A stretch of 64,000 bases of DNA from IMG/VR virus record IMGVR_UViG_3300021598_001271, positions 1 through 64,000 of that record; one strand, 5' to 3'. The notes under the pieces were generated by a model. That model saw only the letters and a program-made list of their open reading frames with translations, made no database searches and was not told the origin of the DNA. Made by a program: the position numbers and the translations under genes. The DNA is from a virus. This document shows positions 2,931 through 57,828 of the stretch, in pieces; the first letter of the stretch is position 1; every line of letters begins with the position of its first letter.

Positions 2931-3497
2931 CTATTCTTCAAACATTCCTTTTTCAGTAACCGACATAAAATCACATATTACAGGGATACCTGTTTGTTTA
3001 GTTACAATAATAAACATTTGTAGATTTATAGCTTCTTTCATTTCTTCATCAACTTCCCATCCAAAATCCTCGTTAGTATGAGCATCATAGACATTATCAA
3101 TCACAACACCATCACCGTGGTCAATATCAACAATACCATTTCCATCAACTTCAGCGTCAAACCAAAAATTTTCAATAATATCTATATTAAAATCACCACT
3201 TATTCTAAACCCACTAACTTTAAATTTAAAATCATAAGTTCCTAACTCAGCTCTATAAATCTTATTAGAAAACTGTTCTAACATTTTGTAAACAGTTTCT
3301 ATTCCTCCGTACCACTCAACTAACCATTTTAGTACCGTTGACCAATAATCGTTCACACCAAATAGTTTTAAGGTGGAATCTGAAACATCAGGTCCATTCT
3401 TATCCCAATACTTAAATATTGGGGATTTAAGGTGGTCCACAGAATGTTTAGATTTCTGTAATAAATTATATTGTTGTTCGGTAATTATTATTTTCAT
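2931..3497 (-). CDS. Tagged hypothetical protein (ITEQQY family)
   Basis: 188 residues beginning MKIIITEQQYNLLQKSK, almost the same 10-residue start as the proteins at 1272 and 13594, with an ITE processing site. The rest is unrelated to those proteins: an acidic, aromatic-rich beta-type domain with a run of Asp/Gly (DIDHGDGVVIDN). No family recognised. It has its own late-type octamer and a strong terminator, so it is a single-gene transcript. Probably a minor virion protein. Confidence 0.65.
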   Translation of the reverse strand: MKIIITEQQYNLLQKSKHSVDHLKSPIFKYWDKNGPDVSDSTLKLFGVNDYWSTVLKWLVEWYGGIETVYKMLEQFSNKIYRAELGTYDFKFKVSGFRISGDFNIDIIENFWFDAEVDGNGIVDIDHGDGVVIDNVYDAHTNEDFGWEVDEEMKEAINLQMFIIVTKQTGIPVICDFMSVTEKGMFEE

Positions 3498-13593: not shown

Positions 13594-14202
13594 ATGAAAA
13601 TTACTATTACAGAACAACAATATAAAATATTGGTCGAGGACGCTCAGATTGAACCGTCTAAAACCGCAGTCAAAAATATCTGTACTGCGGAAAAATTCTG
13701 TAGTAGTCAAGGTAAAATTACTTTTGGTCAGTTAAGAGCACTTGTTGAGGCGGGTAAAAAAGAAAGACTTCTTAAACATATTGGTGAAGGGGGATTTAAA
13801 GCAATGATTAGAATTGTTCCTTGGTTTTTACCTCAGGCGGCGATTGCAGGGTTCATTGGTTCAACTGCAAGAGCTTTAAACAAATTATTTAAACCAGCAC
13901 TTACTGAAACTGAATCTTATAAAACTTGGTGGGGTAAAGTAGTTTTAAAGTCATTTAAACTATCCGAAGGTGAGTTGAACTTGGAAGACCCATTCTCAAG
14001 AATATTCTTTATATCTGATGGTCTTATGACAATGTTAGATGATAAGTATAAAGTTAAGTTCGCTAACCATATTTCAGATATCGCATCATCAATGGATGAT
14101 AATACCGAAGTACCTGAATTATTTGTAGAAAATGAATTAAGGAAATGGGTTAATGATAAATTCTTTTTAGACCCACCCTTACCTGAAAAAATAATACAAT
14201 AA
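13594..14202 (+). CDS. Tagged hypothetical protein (ITEQQY family)
   Basis: 202 residues starting MKITITEQQYKILVEDAQ, with ITE and LVE as candidate processing sites. The body has a hydrophobic segment at about 71-90 (MIRIVPWFLPQAAIAGFIGS) that could cross or contact a membrane, then a helical acidic domain. No family recognised. A single-gene transcript with its own octamer and terminator. A membrane-active packaged protein is possible. Confidence 0.65.
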   Translation: MKITITEQQYKILVEDAQIEPSKTAVKNICTAEKFCSSQGKITFGQLRALVEAGKKERLLKHIGEGGFKAMIRIVPWFLPQAAIAGFIGSTARALNKLFKPALTETESYKTWWGKVVLKSFKLSEGELNLEDPFSRIFFISDGLMTMLDDKYKVKFANHISDIASSMDDNTEVPELFVENELRKWVNDKFFLDPPLPEKIIQ

Positions 14203-19002: not shown

Positions 19003-19030
19003 AAAAGGAGTCCTAAGACTCCTTTTTTTT
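19001..19030. terminator. Bidirectional intrinsic terminator
   Basis: AAAAAAGGAGTCCTAAGACT with the matching arm and T-run, between converging genes. Confidence 0.9.
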
Positions 19031-20252
19031 ATTTTTCAACTTTAATGTTATCTAATTTGAATGTTGGTAATTTAACCATAAATCGTCTGTTTTTTAAAGT
19101 CTCATCAGTACTTTTAGAATTTGGCCATTTTTTACCAGGGTCAAACTCATCGGTCTCTCCCATACCTTTACCAACAAAATTACCAATTTCAGGTAACTTC
19201 TCATTAAGTATCTTAGCAATTTCATCCGCTCTACCCTGAGATAAACATAAATTATACTGTCCCCTAGTTCCATCACCATAACCTCTACAAGGACCATACT
19301 TACCTTGTACTTTTTGTTTAGGGTCTCCATCAATTGATGAGTATGCTAAAACTGTAATTGGATTTTGTTTTAAGAAATTAATATATTTGTTATACATATC
19401 TTCACCGTATGTAGAGCTAACTTCTTTAATTTGGGATACAAACATATTAATACTATCAATAGAATCTTGTTGTAATTGTATGGTGTCAAAGATAAATGGT
19501 TCTGCGTTTTTATTATCCAAAGTAATACTAACAACACGTTCTGTAGTCGTATCACCTGTATATACAGGTTGTTTGAATATTGAACCAGTGTTCCCAATTT
19601 TAAAAGCTTTTAAATATAATTTTGAGTTTCCTACTTCAAAGTTGAACATCATTTTTTTAGCAACTTGGATACTAAATAAATTTGAACCTTGTCCGTCAGT
19701 AGTAAGTCCAGAACCAAATGGAATTTGTTCATTAATACCGTAACCATCTTTACCATTGGAAAGTCCTCCAACAATACTAACGTATCCAAATTGTCTGTTT
19801 TGAGGAACCATAAAGCAACTAGCCATCGCGGCATCTACTTGTTCCTTAATATAAGGATGTCTTTCAAAAAGTATTTTGTAGTCAGGATTTTCATACACAG
19901 GTCCTAAGTATTCTGATATTGGGTTATCCCCCATATCAATGTAAGCCACTTCTGTAACCCATTGTCTTCTATCAGATTCATAGTTCATAACAATATCTTT
20001 ACCACTAACTTTACCATCAAATAAAACTGATAAAATAACAGGTTCGTCATCACCACCTGATTTCCATTTTAATGTTAGACTTGAAAAAATTTCGTTTTGT
20101 TTTTCGGAAATAATTTTATTAATTTCCTTTTCAAGACTTATTACTGCTTGTTGGTCGGTTAATGTTCCACTATTAGTTGTTTTTTGTTCTGAGATAACTC
20201 TCTTAACTATTCGATATAAGTCAGACTCAGTTAATTTTATAACTCTACCCAT
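19029..20252 (-). CDS. Tagged protein with C-terminal OmpA-like domain
   Basis: 407 residues. The start MGRVIKLTESDLYRIVKRV, ending ISEQ, is the clearest full tag, with LTE and ISE sites. Residues about 290-400 match the OmpA peptidoglycan-binding domain: VLAYSSIDGD, LCLSQGRADEIAKIL, GMGETD and NRRFMV. The domain carries an unusual Cys pair (GPCRGYG, LCLSQ). The middle 250 residues are beta-rich and unrecognised. A packaged protein that holds peptidoglycan could help genome entry. It has its own octamer. Confidence 0.75.
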   Translation of the reverse strand: MGRVIKLTESDLYRIVKRVISEQKTTNSGTLTDQQAVISLEKEINKIISEKQNEIFSSLTLKWKSGGDDEPVILSVLFDGKVSGKDIVMNYESDRRQWVTEVAYIDMGDNPISEYLGPVYENPDYKILFERHPYIKEQVDAAMASCFMVPQNRQFGYVSIVGGLSNGKDGYGINEQIPFGSGLTTDGQGSNLFSIQVAKKMMFNFEVGNSKLYLKAFKIGNTGSIFKQPVYTGDTTTERVVSITLDNKNAEPFIFDTIQLQQDSIDSINMFVSQIKEVSSTYGEDMYNKYINFLKQNPITVLAYSSIDGDPKQKVQGKYGPCRGYGDGTRGQYNLCLSQGRADEIAKILNEKLPEIGNFVGKGMGETDEFDPGKKWPNSKSTDETLKNRRFMVKLPTFKLDNIKVEK

Positions 20253-21448: not shown

Positions 21449-22681
21449 TTAATTACTTAACGGTGCTTTAATTGTTGGGTGAGCCTGATAGTTCTCTAAA
21501 ATAACATCACTAATAGAACTACAGAATATACCATCTCTAACGTGGACTGTTGGTAATTCAAAAGGTTCTCTTGTTCTTTTCGGTGTTGGTACATAATATT
21601 CATTATCAAAATCAGGTAAATTATTAGGGTCAAAATATCTTTCCATACCCGTTTCGTAGTTGTTATTAAACCATATGTTATATCTTTCCTCATCAGTTAA
21701 CTCTCTACCAATCTGTTCTTTCGCTTGTTCAATATGATTTAAATATATGTGTGTATCACCCAAATTACCAATTAATTCATCAGGAACCATATTCACCTCA
21801 TCGGCTAACATTAGTAACAACAATCCGTAAGATGCAATGTTGAATGGTAAACCTAAGAATGTATCTACTGAACGTTGATTCCACATTAAAGAGATTGCTC
21901 TAGTTGGGATGTTGTAAGTATCAAGTAATCTATTCCACCCACTTACATCACTTGGAAATATATCTTTGTTCCAATTCGATTTGTTATATAAATCCATTCG
22001 TTCTTGTTCACTTAACTCTCTTGTATAAACTTGAAATCCATAATGACAAGGTGGGAGTACCATAGAATCCAATTCTCCGACATTCCAAGCATTAACCATT
22101 AATCGTCTTGAGTCTGGGTTTGTTTTAAGGTCGTTGATTAAAATAGATATTTGGTCAATAACCGTTTGGTTGACTTCATCATAAATGTTTTCATATGAAC
22201 CATCAGTTGATAGATACATTTTCTTTTTAGTCCAACCTCTCCATTGTTTACCATAAATTGGACCTAACTCACCCCACTTCTTAGCAAACTCATCATCTGT
22301 TTTGATTTTGTTGATGAATTCTTCTATTGGATATGGTCTTAAACTATTTCTATAAAACTCACCTAATTCATTTTTTTCTAAGTATTCATCCATAAAGTGC
22401 TTACAATAATTCTTATAAGCATCACCATCCCAAATATGACAACCATTATCAACAAGGAACTTGATATTTGTACTACCTTGTAAAAACCATAGTAACTCAG
22501 TCACCATTGTTTTCCAAGCCATTTTCTTAGTTGTAAGTAATGGAAACCCTTCACTCATTTTATGACGGATTTGTCTTCCGAATACTGAAATGGTTCCTGT
22601 ACCTGTTCTATCTTTTTTCTCTATACCGTTATCCAAGATGTCTTGAAGTAACTCTTGGTATTTTTTATCTATATTATTCAT
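21449..22681 (-). CDS. thyA: Thymidylate synthase (ThyA type)
   Basis: 410 residues against about 264 for E. coli ThyA; the excess is spread as insertions (about 105-165 and 330-380). The catalytic Cys is in LPPCHYGFQ, the nucleotide-binding residues in DSRRLMVNAWNV and QRSVDTFLGLPFNIASYG, and the C-terminal SDVILENYQAHPTIKAPLSN closes the fold. Makes dTMP from dUMP using methylene-tetrahydrofolate for phage DNA synthesis. Confidence 0.95.
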   Translation of the reverse strand: MNNIDKKYQELLQDILDNGIEKKDRTGTGTISVFGRQIRHKMSEGFPLLTTKKMAWKTMVTELLWFLQGSTNIKFLVDNGCHIWDGDAYKNYCKHFMDEYLEKNELGEFYRNSLRPYPIEEFINKIKTDDEFAKKWGELGPIYGKQWRGWTKKKMYLSTDGSYENIYDEVNQTVIDQISILINDLKTNPDSRRLMVNAWNVGELDSMVLPPCHYGFQVYTRELSEQERMDLYNKSNWNKDIFPSDVSGWNRLLDTYNIPTRAISLMWNQRSVDTFLGLPFNIASYGLLLLMLADEVNMVPDELIGNLGDTHIYLNHIEQAKEQIGRELTDEERYNIWFNNNYETGMERYFDPNNLPDFDNEYYVPTPKRTREPFELPTVHVRDGIFCSSISDVILENYQAHPTIKAPLSN

Positions 22682-24767: not shown

Positions 24768-25094
24768 TTAAGTTCCAATTAACAAATCGTCATAGTTAAT
24801 AGACGTGTCAGTACCTTTCTGACCATCTTTAACTTCTCCGTACATAAATGATTTAACCACCGATGTTATCGATTGGTCGCACTGTGCAATTTTACTTTCC
24901 ATCCAATCTTCAAGTTCTTCACCTTCCTCAAGTAATTCCCACATTTTATAGGCCAAAGTAGCAATAGTAAATAACTGTTGTTTCGCCATATAATTTCCAT
25001 CTGAACCTTCCGACACTTCACTTTCATTAATTGTCTTTATTCTACTAACAATCTTAGCAAGTTGTTCTTCAGTTATAATAATATTTTTACTCAT
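24768..25094 (-). CDS. Short tagged protein (ITEEQL type)
   Basis: 108 residues starting MSKNIIITEEQLAKIVSRI and reaching INES, so ITE and INE are both present around an amphipathic helix. The body (MAKQQLFTIATLAYKMWELL, LEDWMESKIAQCDQS, VVKSFMYGE) is a compact helical domain I recognise as recurring in phage genomes, without known function. Probably a small internal head protein. Octamer 13 nt upstream. Confidence 0.7.
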   Translation of the reverse strand: MSKNIIITEEQLAKIVSRIKTINESEVSEGSDGNYMAKQQLFTIATLAYKMWELLEEGEELEDWMESKIAQCDQSITSVVKSFMYGEVKDGQKGTDTSINYDDLLIGT

Positions 25095-26732: not shown

Positions 26733-27170
26733 TCATATTAAAGTTCTACTTATTTCTCTTTCTATATCACGATTTTTAATCGTGTCTCTTTTATCGTGTA
26801 ATTTTTTACCACGACCTAAAACAACCTCAACCTTTATTAGTCCTCTTTCATTTTCAAAAATACGATAAGGCACTATCGTCAAACCTTTTACTAACTCTTT
26901 TTTAAGTCTATCCAATTCTATTTTCTTCAAAAGAAGTTTTCTATCTTGTGTAGATTTGTGAGTATATGATGAGGACATCTCAGTTATGTTCGCATTCTTA
27001 AGAACTAACTCGTCATTAATGAAGGTACAATATGATTCTGACAAAGAAACCTTCCCTGATTTGATTGATTTAACCTCAGAACCAATTAATACAATACCAG
27101 CAATTTCAGTACGAATAACTTCATACTCAAACTTAACTCTCTTGTTTACTATGTTGACTTTGGTTTTCAC
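26733..27170 (-). CDS. smpB: SmpB, tmRNA-binding protein
   Basis: 145 residues from a GTG start. AGIVLIGSEVKSIKSGKVSL, SESYCTFINDE, RKLLLKK, KGLTIVPYRIF and the C-terminal GRGKKLHDKRDTIK are the SmpB hallmarks, including the oligonucleotide-binding barrel and the basic tail that reads the empty A site. SmpB delivers tmRNA to stalled ribosomes. A phage copy could replace or hijack host ribosome rescue. It has a host-type promoter 5 nt upstream and lies next to the giant RNA locus. Confidence 0.85.
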   Translation of the reverse strand: MKTKVNIVNKRVKFEYEVIRTEIAGIVLIGSEVKSIKSGKVSLSESYCTFINDELVLKNANITEMSSSYTHKSTQDRKLLLKKIELDRLKKELVKGLTIVPYRIFENERGLIKVEVVLGRGKKLHDKRDTIKNRDIEREISRTLI

Positions 27171-28899: not shown

Positions 28900-29450
28900 T
28901 GAATATGAAATTCTTAAATTTCTTTAAGTATTGGTACGTAATTGCTTGTACGTTTATTTTGTTGACGAGTCTTTCTGCCGTTTTTGACGAGGACTTGTCT
29001 CCAAATAAACGTTTAGAACAAGCATCTTTAAAACCTAACTCCCCTGTTTCTTTACAGATGTATTATCTTCTTGAAAAATATTCTGAAGAATATAAGATAC
29101 CTAAATACATTGCTTACAATGTGGCATTTTTGGAAACAAGGTATCGAGGTCCATTTGATTGGGATTACAATCCTTATTTGATTTCATCTGCAGGTGCGGT
29201 TGGTCCTATGCAAGTAATGGTTAGAACCGCCGAGTATGTAAATAAAAAAGATATTACTAAATCTAATTTGAAAAATAACTTGGAGTTAAATATTTCAACA
29301 AGTATGAAATTGTTAAATAAGTTATATAACCAATATGAAGACTGGGGAATATCCTGTGGTTATTACAATACAGGATATCCTAAGGTAAATGATTATGCTT
29401 TATTCTGTGTAACAAATAAAAATTACACTAAGAATTGGGAATCTTATTGA
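28899..29450 (+). CDS. Lytic transglycosylase, SLT type, membrane-anchored
   Basis: 183 residues. A hydrophobic N-terminus (about 12-30) acts as signal or anchor. The SLT core follows: AFLETRYRGP with the catalytic Glu, SSAGAVGPMQVMVRTA, NISTSMKLLNKL and GISCGYYNTGYP. Cleaves peptidoglycan glycan strands without water. Expressed from a host-type promoter rather than the lysis region, so it could act in entry, wall remodelling or superinfection control. Confidence 0.8.
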   Translation: MNMKFLNFFKYWYVIACTFILLTSLSAVFDEDLSPNKRLEQASLKPNSPVSLQMYYLLEKYSEEYKIPKYIAYNVAFLETRYRGPFDWDYNPYLISSAGAVGPMQVMVRTAEYVNKKDITKSNLKNNLELNISTSMKLLNKLYNQYEDWGISCGYYNTGYPKVNDYALFCVTNKNYTKNWESY

Positions 29451-31411
29451 TTAAAGAATTTTTTTCTGATTTCAAAATTAACATCAACCTTATTTAACTT
29501 ATCATTCAACCAATCTAACATATTAGATTCACTACTGAAAAGTTCTTGCGGGTCTTCATTATCTCTTAAAGGTAATTCTACAACTCTTTTAGCACCATCT
29601 AAATAATGAGCACCACTATTTTTAGGCCCGTATTTAATTACTCCGTTGTCACCAACTAAAATTAAGTCGTGTACTATATCGTCACAGTCAATACCATTAC
29701 CATCCACAATTATATATTCTAAATCTTGGAAAGGACTGTATGACCTGTAACCATCAATATGGGGTAACATTTCTTTATCATCATCCGATTCTAACAATCC
29801 AAAATGCTCAGGTTGTTCTAAGTCAGGTTGTAATCTATAATTTGTAGTTAATTCTTCACCTTTCTTAATTGGTCGAGACGCTACTAAAAATCTTTGTTTG
29901 TCCTTTAAAACATTGTGACAGTTAGGGTCATCACTATGGTTGTGCATTTTACCTAATTCTGTAAAATCATAACTAACTCCAGGTTTGTTTATAGTATGTA
30001 AAAGTCCAATGGTTTCATTCTCTTCCAAATCATTTTTTGCAAATGAACCTTTTCCCTGGATATCACTTTTATCTACGTAATATTTTTTAACATCAACGTT
30101 TTCAGTAATATTATTAGATTCGTTATTAATTTTGTCTTTCAATTGTTTAACAAATTCATTTTGAATCATTTTAGTAAATTTAACATAAGGTGAATCGTCT
30201 GATTCAGGATTATACTTATAAGTTCCTTGTGGTGGTCTGCTAGACCTTCCTAAGTAACTAAGACCTGAAATATTTGTAATACATTTATGTCCACCGCTAT
30301 TTGCTTGAATTAAGTCCCAAGCCGAAACACCAATATTATCTAATATCAACATTTCTTCTTCAGTTAATTCAGATGTTGGTTTGTTCATTAATTCTCTAAC
30401 TCTCATTAGATAATCAGCACCACCATCAACAGATTTAAATTTATCACCGTATAATGCAGTGAAGTCTTTAAACGTGAATCCTACTGATTCAGGTCCAAAT
30501 CCTTTAGAAGATTCCGAAATCCACTTAATAGTTGATAACGAAACTCTCTTTTCTTTAAGTTGTGATTCCCATTTAGATAAAACATCTTGTGCAATCTCAC
30601 CAAGATTTACTCCTTTTAATTCTCTTTCTTTTTTAAATGGATTACAAGAGGCTTGAACCAATCCTAATGGCCAAGCAATAACCAAGAAATCCGCTTCAGG
30701 ATTATTTTTAAATGGAGTATATCTATCATAGGAACCTGGCTTCATCATACTACCACCACCATACTGAACGATAATATTGTCGTCAATCTTAACGTTAGGA
30801 TGTGACTTCATTTGTTGAACGTAACCCTCTTTATTTTTTTCTAACTCAACTTCTTTAGGATAACCTTTATCACCCATTATTTTCTTTATTTCAGTAAAAA
30901 TACTCATTAAAGATGGTTGACAGTTCATAACCAACTGTTCAAGGAATCCTGGTTTATTTTTAAAAGCCAATAATAATTTGTTAGTAACTAAACCTAATAA
31001 AGTTTTGTTTTTAGCTAAATCAGAATCTTTGTCAATTCTATAGATATAGTTCATAACCATATCTGGAGTAATTTCGTTTTTGGCATAGTCAGCACTATCG
31101 ACCATTGAAATTAAGAATATGTCTTTCGCAGGGAATAGGTCTCCAGGGGATACTATCTGAGAAATAAAGTCCACTAAGACAGGCATTGTATCACCCTGAG
31201 CATCATTCTTCTTAACAGAAAACTCTTTATCACCATATTGAATTACGTGAGCGTCAACTACTTTAATACCATTGTTCTCAAGGTATTTTTTCATCGCAAT
31301 AGCGGTAGTAACACCGTCTAAATCTTGGTGAAAGTATATTTCCGCTTTTGGATATCTTTTTTTAAGTAGGTTAATATCTCTTAACCCTGATTCTTTTAAA
31401 ATTCTTTTCAT
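29444..31411 (-). CDS. Tagged DHH-phosphoesterase-like and SET-domain fusion
   Basis: 655 residues. Start MKRILKESGLRDINLLKKRY holds an LKE site. FHQDLDGVTTAIAM (about 27-40) is a DHH-type metal site, and SGGHKCITNISGLSYLG (about 370-386) resembles the RecJ-like DHHA1 signature. About 443-530 is a SET methyltransferase domain: GKGSFAKNDL, HNHSDDPNC (about 490-498), RPIKKGEELTTNY (Tyr about 525). The last 120 residues are unassigned. A phage protein joining a nucleic-acid or nucleotide phosphoesterase with a protein lysine methyltransferase is unusual. It follows the tagged PG-binding gene by 3 bp. Confidence 0.75.
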   Translation of the reverse strand: MKRILKESGLRDINLLKKRYPKAEIYFHQDLDGVTTAIAMKKYLENNGIKVVDAHVIQYGDKEFSVKKNDAQGDTMPVLVDFISQIVSPGDLFPAKDIFLISMVDSADYAKNEITPDMVMNYIYRIDKDSDLAKNKTLLGLVTNKLLLAFKNKPGFLEQLVMNCQPSLMSIFTEIKKIMGDKGYPKEVELEKNKEGYVQQMKSHPNVKIDDNIIVQYGGGSMMKPGSYDRYTPFKNNPEADFLVIAWPLGLVQASCNPFKKERELKGVNLGEIAQDVLSKWESQLKEKRVSLSTIKWISESSKGFGPESVGFTFKDFTALYGDKFKSVDGGADYLMRVRELMNKPTSELTEEEMLILDNIGVSAWDLIQANSGGHKCITNISGLSYLGRSSRPPQGTYKYNPESDDSPYVKFTKMIQNEFVKQLKDKINNESNNITENVDVKKYYVDKSDIQGKGSFAKNDLEENETIGLLHTINKPGVSYDFTELGKMHNHSDDPNCHNVLKDKQRFLVASRPIKKGEELTTNYRLQPDLEQPEHFGLLESDDDKEMLPHIDGYRSYSPFQDLEYIIVDGNGIDCDDIVHDLILVGDNGVIKYGPKNSGAHYLDGAKRVVELPLRDNEDPQELFSSESNMLDWLNDKLNKVDVNFEIRKKFFNQ

Positions 31412-31414
31412 ATA

Positions 31415-31801
31415 TTAATCCCACCCTAACCAGTGCATTGCTTTATCAAAAAGGTCACCTTCATCTGATTTACATTCGTTAAACAAGTTTCTGTCTTTCT
31501 GAGGCATTTTAGACATTGTATTATAACCCCATACACCATCTTGGTCAGCGTTAATCATACCTTGGTAATTGAAAATAGCTTGAGCAGTTTTTGAATTAGG
31601 ATAATTACCGATACTACCATCAACAACTAAAGAATTACCCGCATCGTCCTTCACACCTTTTTTGTTTAAGAAACATTGTACCGCTCTCTTAAAATTATAC
31701 TCTTCTAATTGTTCAAAGATATTACCTTTTGATTTTTCTTCTTGATGTAATTTAAGAATTGAATCTTTTTCCGATTCATTTATAATAAATCTCTTATTCA
31801 T
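31415..31801 (-). CDS. Tagged peptidoglycan-binding-domain protein
   Basis: 128 residues starting MNKRFIINESEKDSILKLHQ (INE site). The body matches a PG-binding type 1 fold: AVQCFLNKKG, VVDGSIGNYPNSKTAQAIFN, DGVWGYNTMSKM. The domain is complete but has no catalytic module, so it anchors to the cell wall. Upstream partner of the DHH-SET gene. Octamer 16 nt before the start. Probably packaged or virion associated. Confidence 0.75.
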   Translation of the reverse strand: MNKRFIINESEKDSILKLHQEEKSKGNIFEQLEEYNFKRAVQCFLNKKGVKDDAGNSLVVDGSIGNYPNSKTAQAIFNYQGMINADQDGVWGYNTMSKMPQKDRNLFNECKSDEGDLFDKAMHWLGWD

Positions 31802-33880: not shown

Positions 33881-35122
33881 TTAATCGTTATAAATTGACC
33901 CGTTTTTATTATTCTTAAATCCTATGTTAGTTGATTCTACATTAGCTTTAGACTCCATCAAGTCTTCAGTTAACTCGTACTCATCATCATTTTGATATTC
34001 CTTTAACAAGTCTTCATTTGAAATGATTCCATTAAACTTGTCTTTTAGTTTTGTAGTGTCAACATCGTTGTACATTGCGTGTAATGTTGTGTCCAACTCT
34101 TCAGATAATTTTAATGATTCTGAAATAACATTAAGAATTCTATATGGGTCTGCGTTTGAACCAGGTCGTCTATCTTCAAGATAACCTTTCCAAGTTTCCC
34201 CAACAACCTTTGGAACTCTAATTGAAGCACCTCTGTCAGATACCCCCCAACTAAACTTATCAATTGATTGTGTTTCGTGTTTACCAGTTAAACGAAGATT
34301 ATTATCTGAACCGTAATTGTCAATATGAACTTTTTGTCTAGACTCAAATACTTTGAATATTGAATTGAAGTAATCTTCTCCTCCTATTTCTCTCATTCTT
34401 TTATTTGAGAAGTTAGTATGTAATCCTGAACCATTCCAATCACCTGATGTAATTGGTTTTGGATGTAGTTCTATTTGATATCCATACTTTTCGGCCAATT
34501 TATAAAGTAGGTATCTTGACATCCATAAGTCATCAGCCGCCTTTAAAATACCTTTTGAAAATGTTTGGTACTCCCACTGACCTAAAGCAACTTCGGCGTT
34601 AGTACCTTCAACAGTAATACCAAGGTCAAGACATAAGTCTAAATGTTCATCACTCAAATGTCTACCAAAGATTTGACCTCCAACACCGCAGTAGTATTTA
34701 CCTTGGGGGTCAATCATTGAGCCGTTATCAAACCCTAAAATGTTTTTATTATGTCCTGAACGGATGAAGTACTCTTGCTCAAATCCAACCCAAAAATCCG
34801 AGTCCTCTTTCCCTAACTTAAATCTTTGATTGGTTTCGTGAGGTTTGTTATTTTTGTCATAAACTTCACAAAGAACATAAAATAAAGGGTATTGCTCATC
34901 GTTTTTAATCATACTACTGTATATTCTAACAGGTTTTAAATAACAGTCTGAAGAATAACCTTCGGCTTGCATAGTTGAGCTGCCATCAAAACCCCACTCT
35001 GGTATATTCTCAATACTTAAACTGTTGTGGTTCTGTTTATTGTCGATGATTTTAATTTTACTTCTGAGGTTTGGTTCTGGTTTGTATCCATCTAACCAAA
35101 CATATTCTAATTTAATTTTCAT
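33881..35122 (-). CDS. Glutamine synthetase, type II-like
   Basis: 413 residues. WGFDGSST (about 43-50), GTNAEVALGQWEYQ, HPKPITSGDWNGSGLHTNFS, RLTGKHET and DRGASIRVP with the final DRRPGSNADPY are the glutamine synthetase catalytic motifs in the order and length of the eukaryote-like type II enzyme. About 60 extra residues follow at the C-terminus. Makes glutamine from glutamate, ammonia and ATP. In a phage it could sustain nucleotide and amino-acid supply. Confidence 0.95.
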   Translation of the reverse strand: MKIKLEYVWLDGYKPEPNLRSKIKIIDNKQNHNSLSIENIPEWGFDGSSTMQAEGYSSDCYLKPVRIYSSMIKNDEQYPLFYVLCEVYDKNNKPHETNQRFKLGKEDSDFWVGFEQEYFIRSGHNKNILGFDNGSMIDPQGKYYCGVGGQIFGRHLSDEHLDLCLDLGITVEGTNAEVALGQWEYQTFSKGILKAADDLWMSRYLLYKLAEKYGYQIELHPKPITSGDWNGSGLHTNFSNKRMREIGGEDYFNSIFKVFESRQKVHIDNYGSDNNLRLTGKHETQSIDKFSWGVSDRGASIRVPKVVGETWKGYLEDRRPGSNADPYRILNVISESLKLSEELDTTLHAMYNDVDTTKLKDKFNGIISNEDLLKEYQNDDEYELTEDLMESKANVESTNIGFKNNKNGSIYND

Positions 35123-57405: not shown

Positions 57406-57828
57406 ATGAAGAAAAAAATTTATCTATCGGAATCGGAATTAATTTCGGTAATAAAAAAAATGGCCATAATTAGTAAATCTAAGGAAAATTCAGTTAACGA
57501 ACAAGTTAATGATGAAGAAGAAGATGACTATAACCCAAGACAAGACTTAATTAATACTTTAAAATCAAAAATAGATTCTGATGAAGATTTTGATGAATCT
57601 GATATAAGAGACATTTATGATGATGGTAAACCATTTAGAAGTGGTAGAGGTTCAATATATGTTGACATTATGGTACCTGAGACCGATGATAAAGAATTTG
57701 ACAGAGCGGTCGCTAAAAAAATGTTAGAGTACTACTCAAAACAAATTAAAGATGAAAATTACGTTGGTGGAGTTGGTTTCAAAAATAGAGGAAATTTAAT
57801 AAAACCTTACGACAATATGGATTTCTAA
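57406..57828 (+). CDS. Tagged acidic protein (LSESEL type)
   Basis: 140 residues from MKKKIYLSESELISVIKKMA with a second site in VNEQ after a long helix, close to the ITE-type tag in layout. The body is very acidic (NDEEEDDYN) with a small C-terminal domain (GKPFRSGRGSIYVDIMVP). No family recognised. Stand-alone late gene with terminator. Confidence 0.65.
   Translation: MKKKIYLSESELISVIKKMAIISKSKENSVNEQVNDEEEDDYNPRQDLINTLKSKIDSDEDFDESDIRDIYDDGKPFRSGRGSIYVDIMVPETDDKEFDRAVAKKMLEYYSKQIKDENYVGGVGFKNRGNLIKPYDNMDF

What the first reader, a model, noticed from the sequence alone, without database searches (positions are those of the whole stretch)
29444..31411. Fusion of a DHH phosphoesterase-like domain with a SET methyltransferase, carrying the capsid tag
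Seen: FHQDLDGV and SGGHKCITN motifs, then GKGSFAKN, HNHSDDPNC and GEELTTNY of a SET domain in one chain. Known: SET enzymes methylate lysines, DHH enzymes cut single-stranded DNA or small nucleotides such as c-di-AMP or pppA. Inference: an injected bifunctional effector that could remove a defence signal and modify a host protein. I know of no such phage fusion.
Basis: partly seen in the sequence, partly recalled or inferred. Interest (0 to 1): 0.78.

Follow-up and report, generated by a model that had tools for sequence, protein, structure and literature searches.

The report
Phage DHH–SET fusion with capsid tag
A large T4-like phage lineage carries a gene that joins a nucleotide-cutting enzyme to a protein-methylating enzyme behind what looks like a capsid-packaging tag; the join recurs in related phages and is probably injected into the host, but the copy in this window has lost the core of the first active site.

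Summary
The gene is real, on the minus strand (29444–31411, 655 aa). The SET half is secure: Pfam E=5e-10, NHS..PNC and GEELxxxY kept, dN/dS 0.03–0.19. The DHH half is a RecJ/NrnA-type phosphoesterase by fold. All 102 relative loci checked carry the DHH motif; the window copy lacks it through a clean in-frame 111-bp deletion. A contig identical for 2.8 kb upstream and 575 bp downstream is intact, so this is either a recent loss or an assembly error.

The fusion occurs in 13 other viral contigs, while most relatives (74 of the best 80) have DHH alone. SET behaves as a swappable module: one pair shares 97.6% DNA identity in SET but only 67% in DHH. A related SET sits in marine phage multidomain proteins behind a nucleotidyltransferase-like domain.

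The 'capsid tag' is supported: N-terminal enrichment on held-out genes P=7e-5, an invariant Glu at the predicted cleavage site, and T4-type gp21 protease and gp23 capsid genes in a relative. A second (L/I/V)xE site precedes SET in every fusion, so the prohead protease may cut the chain in two.

Best reading: an injected multidomain effector. Targets are unknown. Nothing was tested experimentally.

The parts
29444..31411 (-). Whole gene, 655 aa plus stop; starts 3 bases after the stop codon of the upstream tagged gene (31415-31801), so probably translated from the same message
31391..31411 (-). N-terminal tag MKRILKE, predicted prohead-protease cut after Glu7
   Evidence: Glu7 and Gly9 are the only invariant residues in the first 24 of alignment A3; L/I-x-E rule from PMC9026906
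30122..31390 (-). DHH/DHHA1 (RecJ/NrnA-type) phosphoesterase region, aa 8-430: motif I FHQDLDG 31313-31333, motif II PVLVDF 31166-31183, motif IV MVDSADY 31085-31105, DHHA1 NSGGHK 30284-30301; motif III (DHH) absent in this copy
31165..31166 (-). Junction of the 111-bp in-frame deletion (aa 82/83) that removes AHGKPMFVIHTDHHDRQAGAEDTKSTSFRHSRSNVET
30098..30112 (-). Linker NITEN with a conserved (L/I/V)xE site directly before SET; candidate internal prohead-protease site
29801..30097 (-). SET domain (GKGSFAKN, NHSDDPNC, GEELTTNY) and the conserved LQPDLEQPEHF flank
29447..29800 (-). C-terminal domain of about 110 aa, found only in DHH-SET fusions; no known relative
31415..31801 (-). Upstream tagged gene (MNKRFIINESEK..., weak peptidoglycan-binding-like match), conserved neighbour in this branch (family 18)

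Best explanation
The gene belongs to a family of capsid-targeted, injected effectors of large T4-like phages. An N-terminal targeting sequence (M-K-x-L/I-L/I-x-E) brings the precursor into the prohead, where a gp21-type protease removes the tag. The body is a metal-dependent DHH-DHHA1 phosphoesterase of the RecJ/NrnA kind that hydrolyses a nucleotide or short nucleic acid in the newly infected cell. In some lineages a SET lysine methyltransferase plus a small C-terminal domain has been joined to its end, so the virion also delivers an enzyme that methylates a host (or phage) protein early in infection. The protease may also cut at the conserved (L/I/V)xE site before SET. In this particular genome the phosphoesterase half is predicted inactive, through a recent 111-bp deletion or an assembly error. 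Shown: architecture, folds, recurrence, module exchange, purifying selection, N-terminal pattern, presence of gp21 and gp23 in a relative. Inferred: packaging, cleavage, injection, substrates.
For: Fold: the intact relative L007 matches archaeal RecJ (5x4j E=4.5e-4), PggH pGpG phosphodiesterase (7d62) and SET domains (MLL1, viral vSET 3kma), each with Foldseek probability 1.00; the SET half alone gives the same SET matches. H28, D30, D32, D81, D94-H95-H96, D142 and G410-G411-H412 (L007 numbering) are invariant in nine diverse members. Recurrence: 13 other fusion contigs, and the tree needs at least 3 gains or losses. Module exchange: L011 and L088 share 97.6% DNA identity in SET but 67% in DHH; L009 and L013 are 94-99% identical along their shared stretches, one with SET and one without. 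Selection: dN/dS 0.03-0.19 in SET. Tag: N-terminal enrichment on held-out genes, P=7e-5; distant members start MIKKYQNFLNE or MKKFQSFVNE; a relative's genome has gp21 protease (E=1.5e-24) and gp23 (E=1.9e-65). ITE/VTE is conserved before SET in all six fusion proteins compared, and the Glu also in the marine SET proteins.
Against: No virion proteomics, so packaging is unproven. Bare (L/I/V)xE triplets are common (10 in L007, 5 conserved) and show no N-terminal enrichment by themselves. Models are of modest confidence (mean pLDDT 66.6 and 55.8), and the loop bearing DHH is below 50. The window record itself holds no gp21 or gp23 match, but it is an 89-kb fragment. The DHH member in the Myxococcales contig L126 has no tag, so the enzyme can work outside a phage head. 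No substrate evidence exists for either half.
Confidence: 0.55

Rival explanations
1. It is an intracellular nucleic-acid enzyme (a RecJ-like exonuclease or oligoribonuclease for phage DNA metabolism) made during infection. The N-terminal pattern is only a conserved helix start, and SET is a passenger that modifies a phage protein.
For: Best solved-structure matches are archaeal RecJ nucleases. It lies next to an N6/N4 DNA methylase in nearly all relatives of its branch. Bacterial homologue L126 has no tag.
Against: The tag-like N-terminus recurs on unrelated neighbours (families 6, 18, 39, 45) and is enriched over background. A Glu at the cut position is invariant although the residues before it vary.
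Confidence: 0.25
2. The DHH half is a counter-defence enzyme that destroys a second messenger, such as cyclic oligonucleotides of CBASS or type III CRISPR, or SAM-AMP of Bacteroides-type type III CRISPR. The SET half could then serve mainly as an S-adenosylmethionine-binding partner.
For: DHH phosphodiesterases of jumbo phages have been proposed to counter such signals (PMC7824862). A DHH-family enzyme, NrN of Bacteroides fragilis, degrades SAM-AMP specifically (PMC10600005). Injection at time zero would suit this.
Against: No substrate data. SET keeps methyltransferase residues under strong purifying selection, more than binding alone would need. Most relatives lack SET, so DHH does not depend on it. 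The host is unknown.
Confidence: 0.2
3. The 111-bp deletion is an assembly error, and the real phage carries an intact DHH motif.
For: L007 is identical for 2786 bp before and 575 bp after the junction. The junction was found in no other IMG/VR contig. There is no sign of relaxed selection elsewhere in the DHH half (0 non-synonymous changes against L007).
Against: The deletion is in frame and on a codon boundary, without repeats at its ends that would explain an assembly collapse; a recent real deletion looks the same.
Confidence: 0.5
4. The precursor stays uncut and acts as one bifunctional enzyme.
For: Every SET copy with this C-terminal domain is fused to DHH, and no standalone version was found. 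There is no in-frame start codon in the linker.
Against: Conserved (L/I/V)xE in a low-confidence linker directly before SET, in all fusions and (as the Glu) in the marine proteins.
Confidence: 0.4

Closest known systems
T4 internal (IP) proteins and Alt
   Same: Short N-terminal targeting sequence ending in (L/I)xE, cut by gp21; variable cargo behind it; ejected into the host (PMC9026906, PMC3012670)
   Different: Cargo here is a DHH phosphoesterase with or without SET; the tag was not tested experimentally
Polyvalent proteins of phages and plasmids (Iyer et al. 2017, PMC5512222)
   Same: Several enzyme domains in one chain, thought to be packaged and injected
   Different: A text search for SET, DHH, RecJ and lysine in that paper found no mention of such domains in the passages shown; here carried by a T4-type tag
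RecJ / NrnA / PggH DHH-DHHA1 phosphoesterases
   Same: Fold, motifs I to IV and the DHHA1 GGH motif in intact relatives
   Different: Below curated family cut-offs; large insertions; tag; fusion to SET
vSET of chlorella virus PBCV-1
   Same: Viral SET domain and structural match 3kma
   Different: Standalone, of a eukaryotic virus acting on histone H3; its presence in the virion is from my own knowledge, not checked here
Standalone SET proteins of Pelagibacter phage Kolga (gp27) and cyanophage P-RSM6, and marine nucleotidyltransferase-like/SET multidomain proteins (L097-L107)
   Same: SET domain 35-58% identical; in L097-L107 also a Glu directly before SET and the DLEQPEHF flank
   Different: No DHH domain; no C-terminal 110-aa domain

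Membership tests
SET methyltransferase (PF00856) | Profile score above curated cut-off | tested here: met
   40.1 bits against 22.4
SET methyltransferase (PF00856) | GxG, NHSxxPN and the terminal Tyr motif | tested here: met
   GKG, NHSDDPNC, GEELTTNY; usual D before Y is N here, D in L014 and L097
SET methyltransferase (PF00856) | Lysine methylation activity | not testable with these tools
   needs an assay
DHH-DHHA1 phosphoesterase (RecJ/NrnA kind) | DHH motif III in the window copy | tested here: not met
   deleted; present in all 102 relative loci
DHH-DHHA1 phosphoesterase (RecJ/NrnA kind) | Motifs I to IV and GGH in the intact relatives | tested here: met
   invariant in A3
DHH-DHHA1 phosphoesterase (RecJ/NrnA kind) | Pfam DHH above curated cut-off | tested here: not met
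   22.2 bits (L007) and 27.7 (L108) against 28.1
DHH-DHHA1 phosphoesterase (RecJ/NrnA kind) | Fold of the family | tested here: met
   5x4j E=4.5e-4, probability 1.00, for L007; model of modest confidence
T4-type capsid-targeted internal protein | Short N-terminal sequence ending (L/I)xE, shared by unrelated proteins of the phage | tested here: met
T4-type capsid-targeted internal protein | Phage lineage has gp21-type protease and gp23-type capsid | tested here: met
   in a relative's 318-kb record, not in the window's own fragment
T4-type capsid-targeted internal protein | Found inside virions and cut after the Glu | not testable with these tools
   needs mass spectrometry
Polyvalent protein | Two or more enzyme domains in one chain of a phage | tested here: met
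   DHH-like plus SET, intact in L007

The most novel reading that the evidence does not exclude
A phage capsid polyprotein: one targeting tag carries a DHH phosphoesterase and a SET methyltransferase into the head, the prohead protease cuts at the tag and at the linker, and two separate enzymes are injected in equal numbers, including a lysine methyltransferase that acts on a bacterial protein at the start of infection.
Probability: 0.3. Interest if true: 0.8.

Novelty: new variant of a known kind. Interest (0 to 1): 0.58.

Why it matters
If right, it shows phages delivering a eukaryotic-type lysine methyltransferase with their DNA, and a simple way for them to load several enzymes behind a single packaging tag. 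It gives a concrete, testable set: an intact relative (L007), a natural with/without-SET pair of near-identical phages (L009 and L013), and a natural loss of the DHH motif in this window. I know of no identified target for a phage SET protein, so this could help find one.

Tried and rejected
Plus strand at these coordinates: no long frame. Tag defined as bare (L/I/V)xE: no N-terminal enrichment, so a stricter pattern was used and tested on held-out genes. Separate fold of the SET half: poor confidence, kept only as support for the fold match. Profile of A1 against PDB sequences: nothing useful. Defence library: no match. Cellular homologues: two loci in the genome collection, one on a phage-like contig (terminase-like gene nearby, by eye), one in a Myxococcales contig with a signal-like N-terminus. 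A Shiga-toxin subunit profile match to L126 covers only its signal-peptide-like start (E=0.036) and was dismissed as chance. Direct repeats at the deletion ends, inspected by eye: none.

Full report
The gene. The finding lies on the minus strand, 31411 down to 29444, one open frame of 655 codons. It begins 3 bases after the stop of a smaller tagged gene (31415-31801). The record holding the window is an 89-kb virus fragment.

Domains. SET is clear by profile (PF00856 E=5.2e-10). DHH is only hinted at in this copy (PF01368 E=0.079, TIGR00644 E=0.015). In the near-identical contig L007 the protein is 37 residues longer and reaches E=1.8e-4, still under the curated cut-off. An AlphaFold2 model of L007 (mean pLDDT 66.6) matches archaeal RecJ (5x4j, E=4.5e-4), the pGpG phosphodiesterase PggH, and SET domains including MLL1 and vSET, each with Foldseek probability 1.00. 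TM-scores are low, as expected from modest confidence. The SET half alone gives the same SET matches. In the viral structure library the best matches are uncharacterised phage proteins of the same family.

The missing motif. The 37 residues absent from the window copy include the DHH motif, and all 102 relative loci have it. At the DNA level the window and L007 are identical for 2786 bases before and 575 bases after the gap, which is exactly 111 bases, on a codon boundary, without repeats at its ends. The junction occurs in no other IMG/VR contig. The remaining DHH half shows no non-synonymous change against L007. The window protein is therefore predicted dead as a phosphoesterase; whether the deletion is biological cannot be told without reads.

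Distribution. A scan of IMG/VR gave 400 relatives, of which the best 80 were kept: 74 are DHH alone, 6 are fusions. A scan with the SET part gave 24 contigs: 13 DHH-SET fusions and 11 marine proteins in which a related SET follows a nucleotidyltransferase-like domain. The C-terminal 110 residues occur only in the fusions. On a DHH tree the fusion needs at least three gains or losses. L011 and L088 share 97.6% of SET DNA but 67% of DHH DNA; the near-identical phages L009 and L013 differ in having SET or not. SET is thus a module that moves among these phages, and it is under purifying selection (dN/dS 0.03-0.19).

The tag. In T4, gp21 cuts after (L/I)xE, and the first ten residues of an internal protein suffice for packaging (PMC9026906). 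Here Glu7 is invariant in nine diverse members although the residues before it vary (MKRILKE, MKKLIKE; in distant members MIKKYQNFLNE, MKKFQSFVNE). A stricter pattern read off the window genes is enriched at N-termini of held-out neighbour genes (16 of 142 against 3.7% background, P=7e-5). The 318-kb record of relative L071 has gp21 protease and gp23 capsid genes. Together these make packaging likely; they do not prove it.

The linker. ITE or VTE stands directly before SET in all six fusion proteins compared, in a low-confidence linker, and the Glu is kept in the marine SET proteins. No start codon exists there. I read this as a possible second protease site, at about even odds or less, because such triplets are common (10 in L007, 5 of them conserved).

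Function. Jumbo-phage DHH enzymes have been proposed to destroy defence signals (PMC7824862), and a DHH-family enzyme degrades SAM-AMP in Bacteroides (PMC10600005). The nearest folds, however, are nucleases and an oligonucleotide phosphodiesterase. The SET target is unknown. In the papers searched I found no report of a DHH-SET fusion in a phage; most subscription journals were not searchable.

Verdict. Observation partly confirmed, interpretation partly supported; a new variant of capsid-injected multidomain effectors.

Noticed in passing
26733-27170 (-): SmpB homologue (PF01668 E=9e-43), conserved near this locus in many relatives; no tmRNA gene found in the window
   Followed up: partly
33881-35122 (-): Glutamine-synthetase-like protein (PF00120 E=1e-18), conserved in relatives; the distant branch has beside the DHH gene a different protein with a GFEFEF stretch near its start (family 31), which resembles amidoligases by eye only
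   Followed up: partly
21449-22681 (-): Thymidylate synthase of 410 aa whose profile match spans 361 residues for 257 profile positions, suggesting a large insertion
   Followed up: no
135-1073, 1272-1904, 2931-3497, 13594-14202, 19029-20252, 24768-25094, 31415-31801, 57406-57828: Further genes with the same tag-like N-terminus (KIxITEQQ and similar): a candidate list of injected proteins of this phage
   Followed up: partly
L097-L107: Marine phage proteins, the complete ones about 940-1100 aa: nucleotidyltransferase-like domain, SET, basic linkers, then DUF6267 or (by eye) a ligase-like domain, with repeated NE/ENE motifs between parts
   Followed up: partly
L126:4833-6497: A relative of the DHH family in a Myxococcales contig with a signal-peptide-like start and no capsid tag
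   Followed up: no
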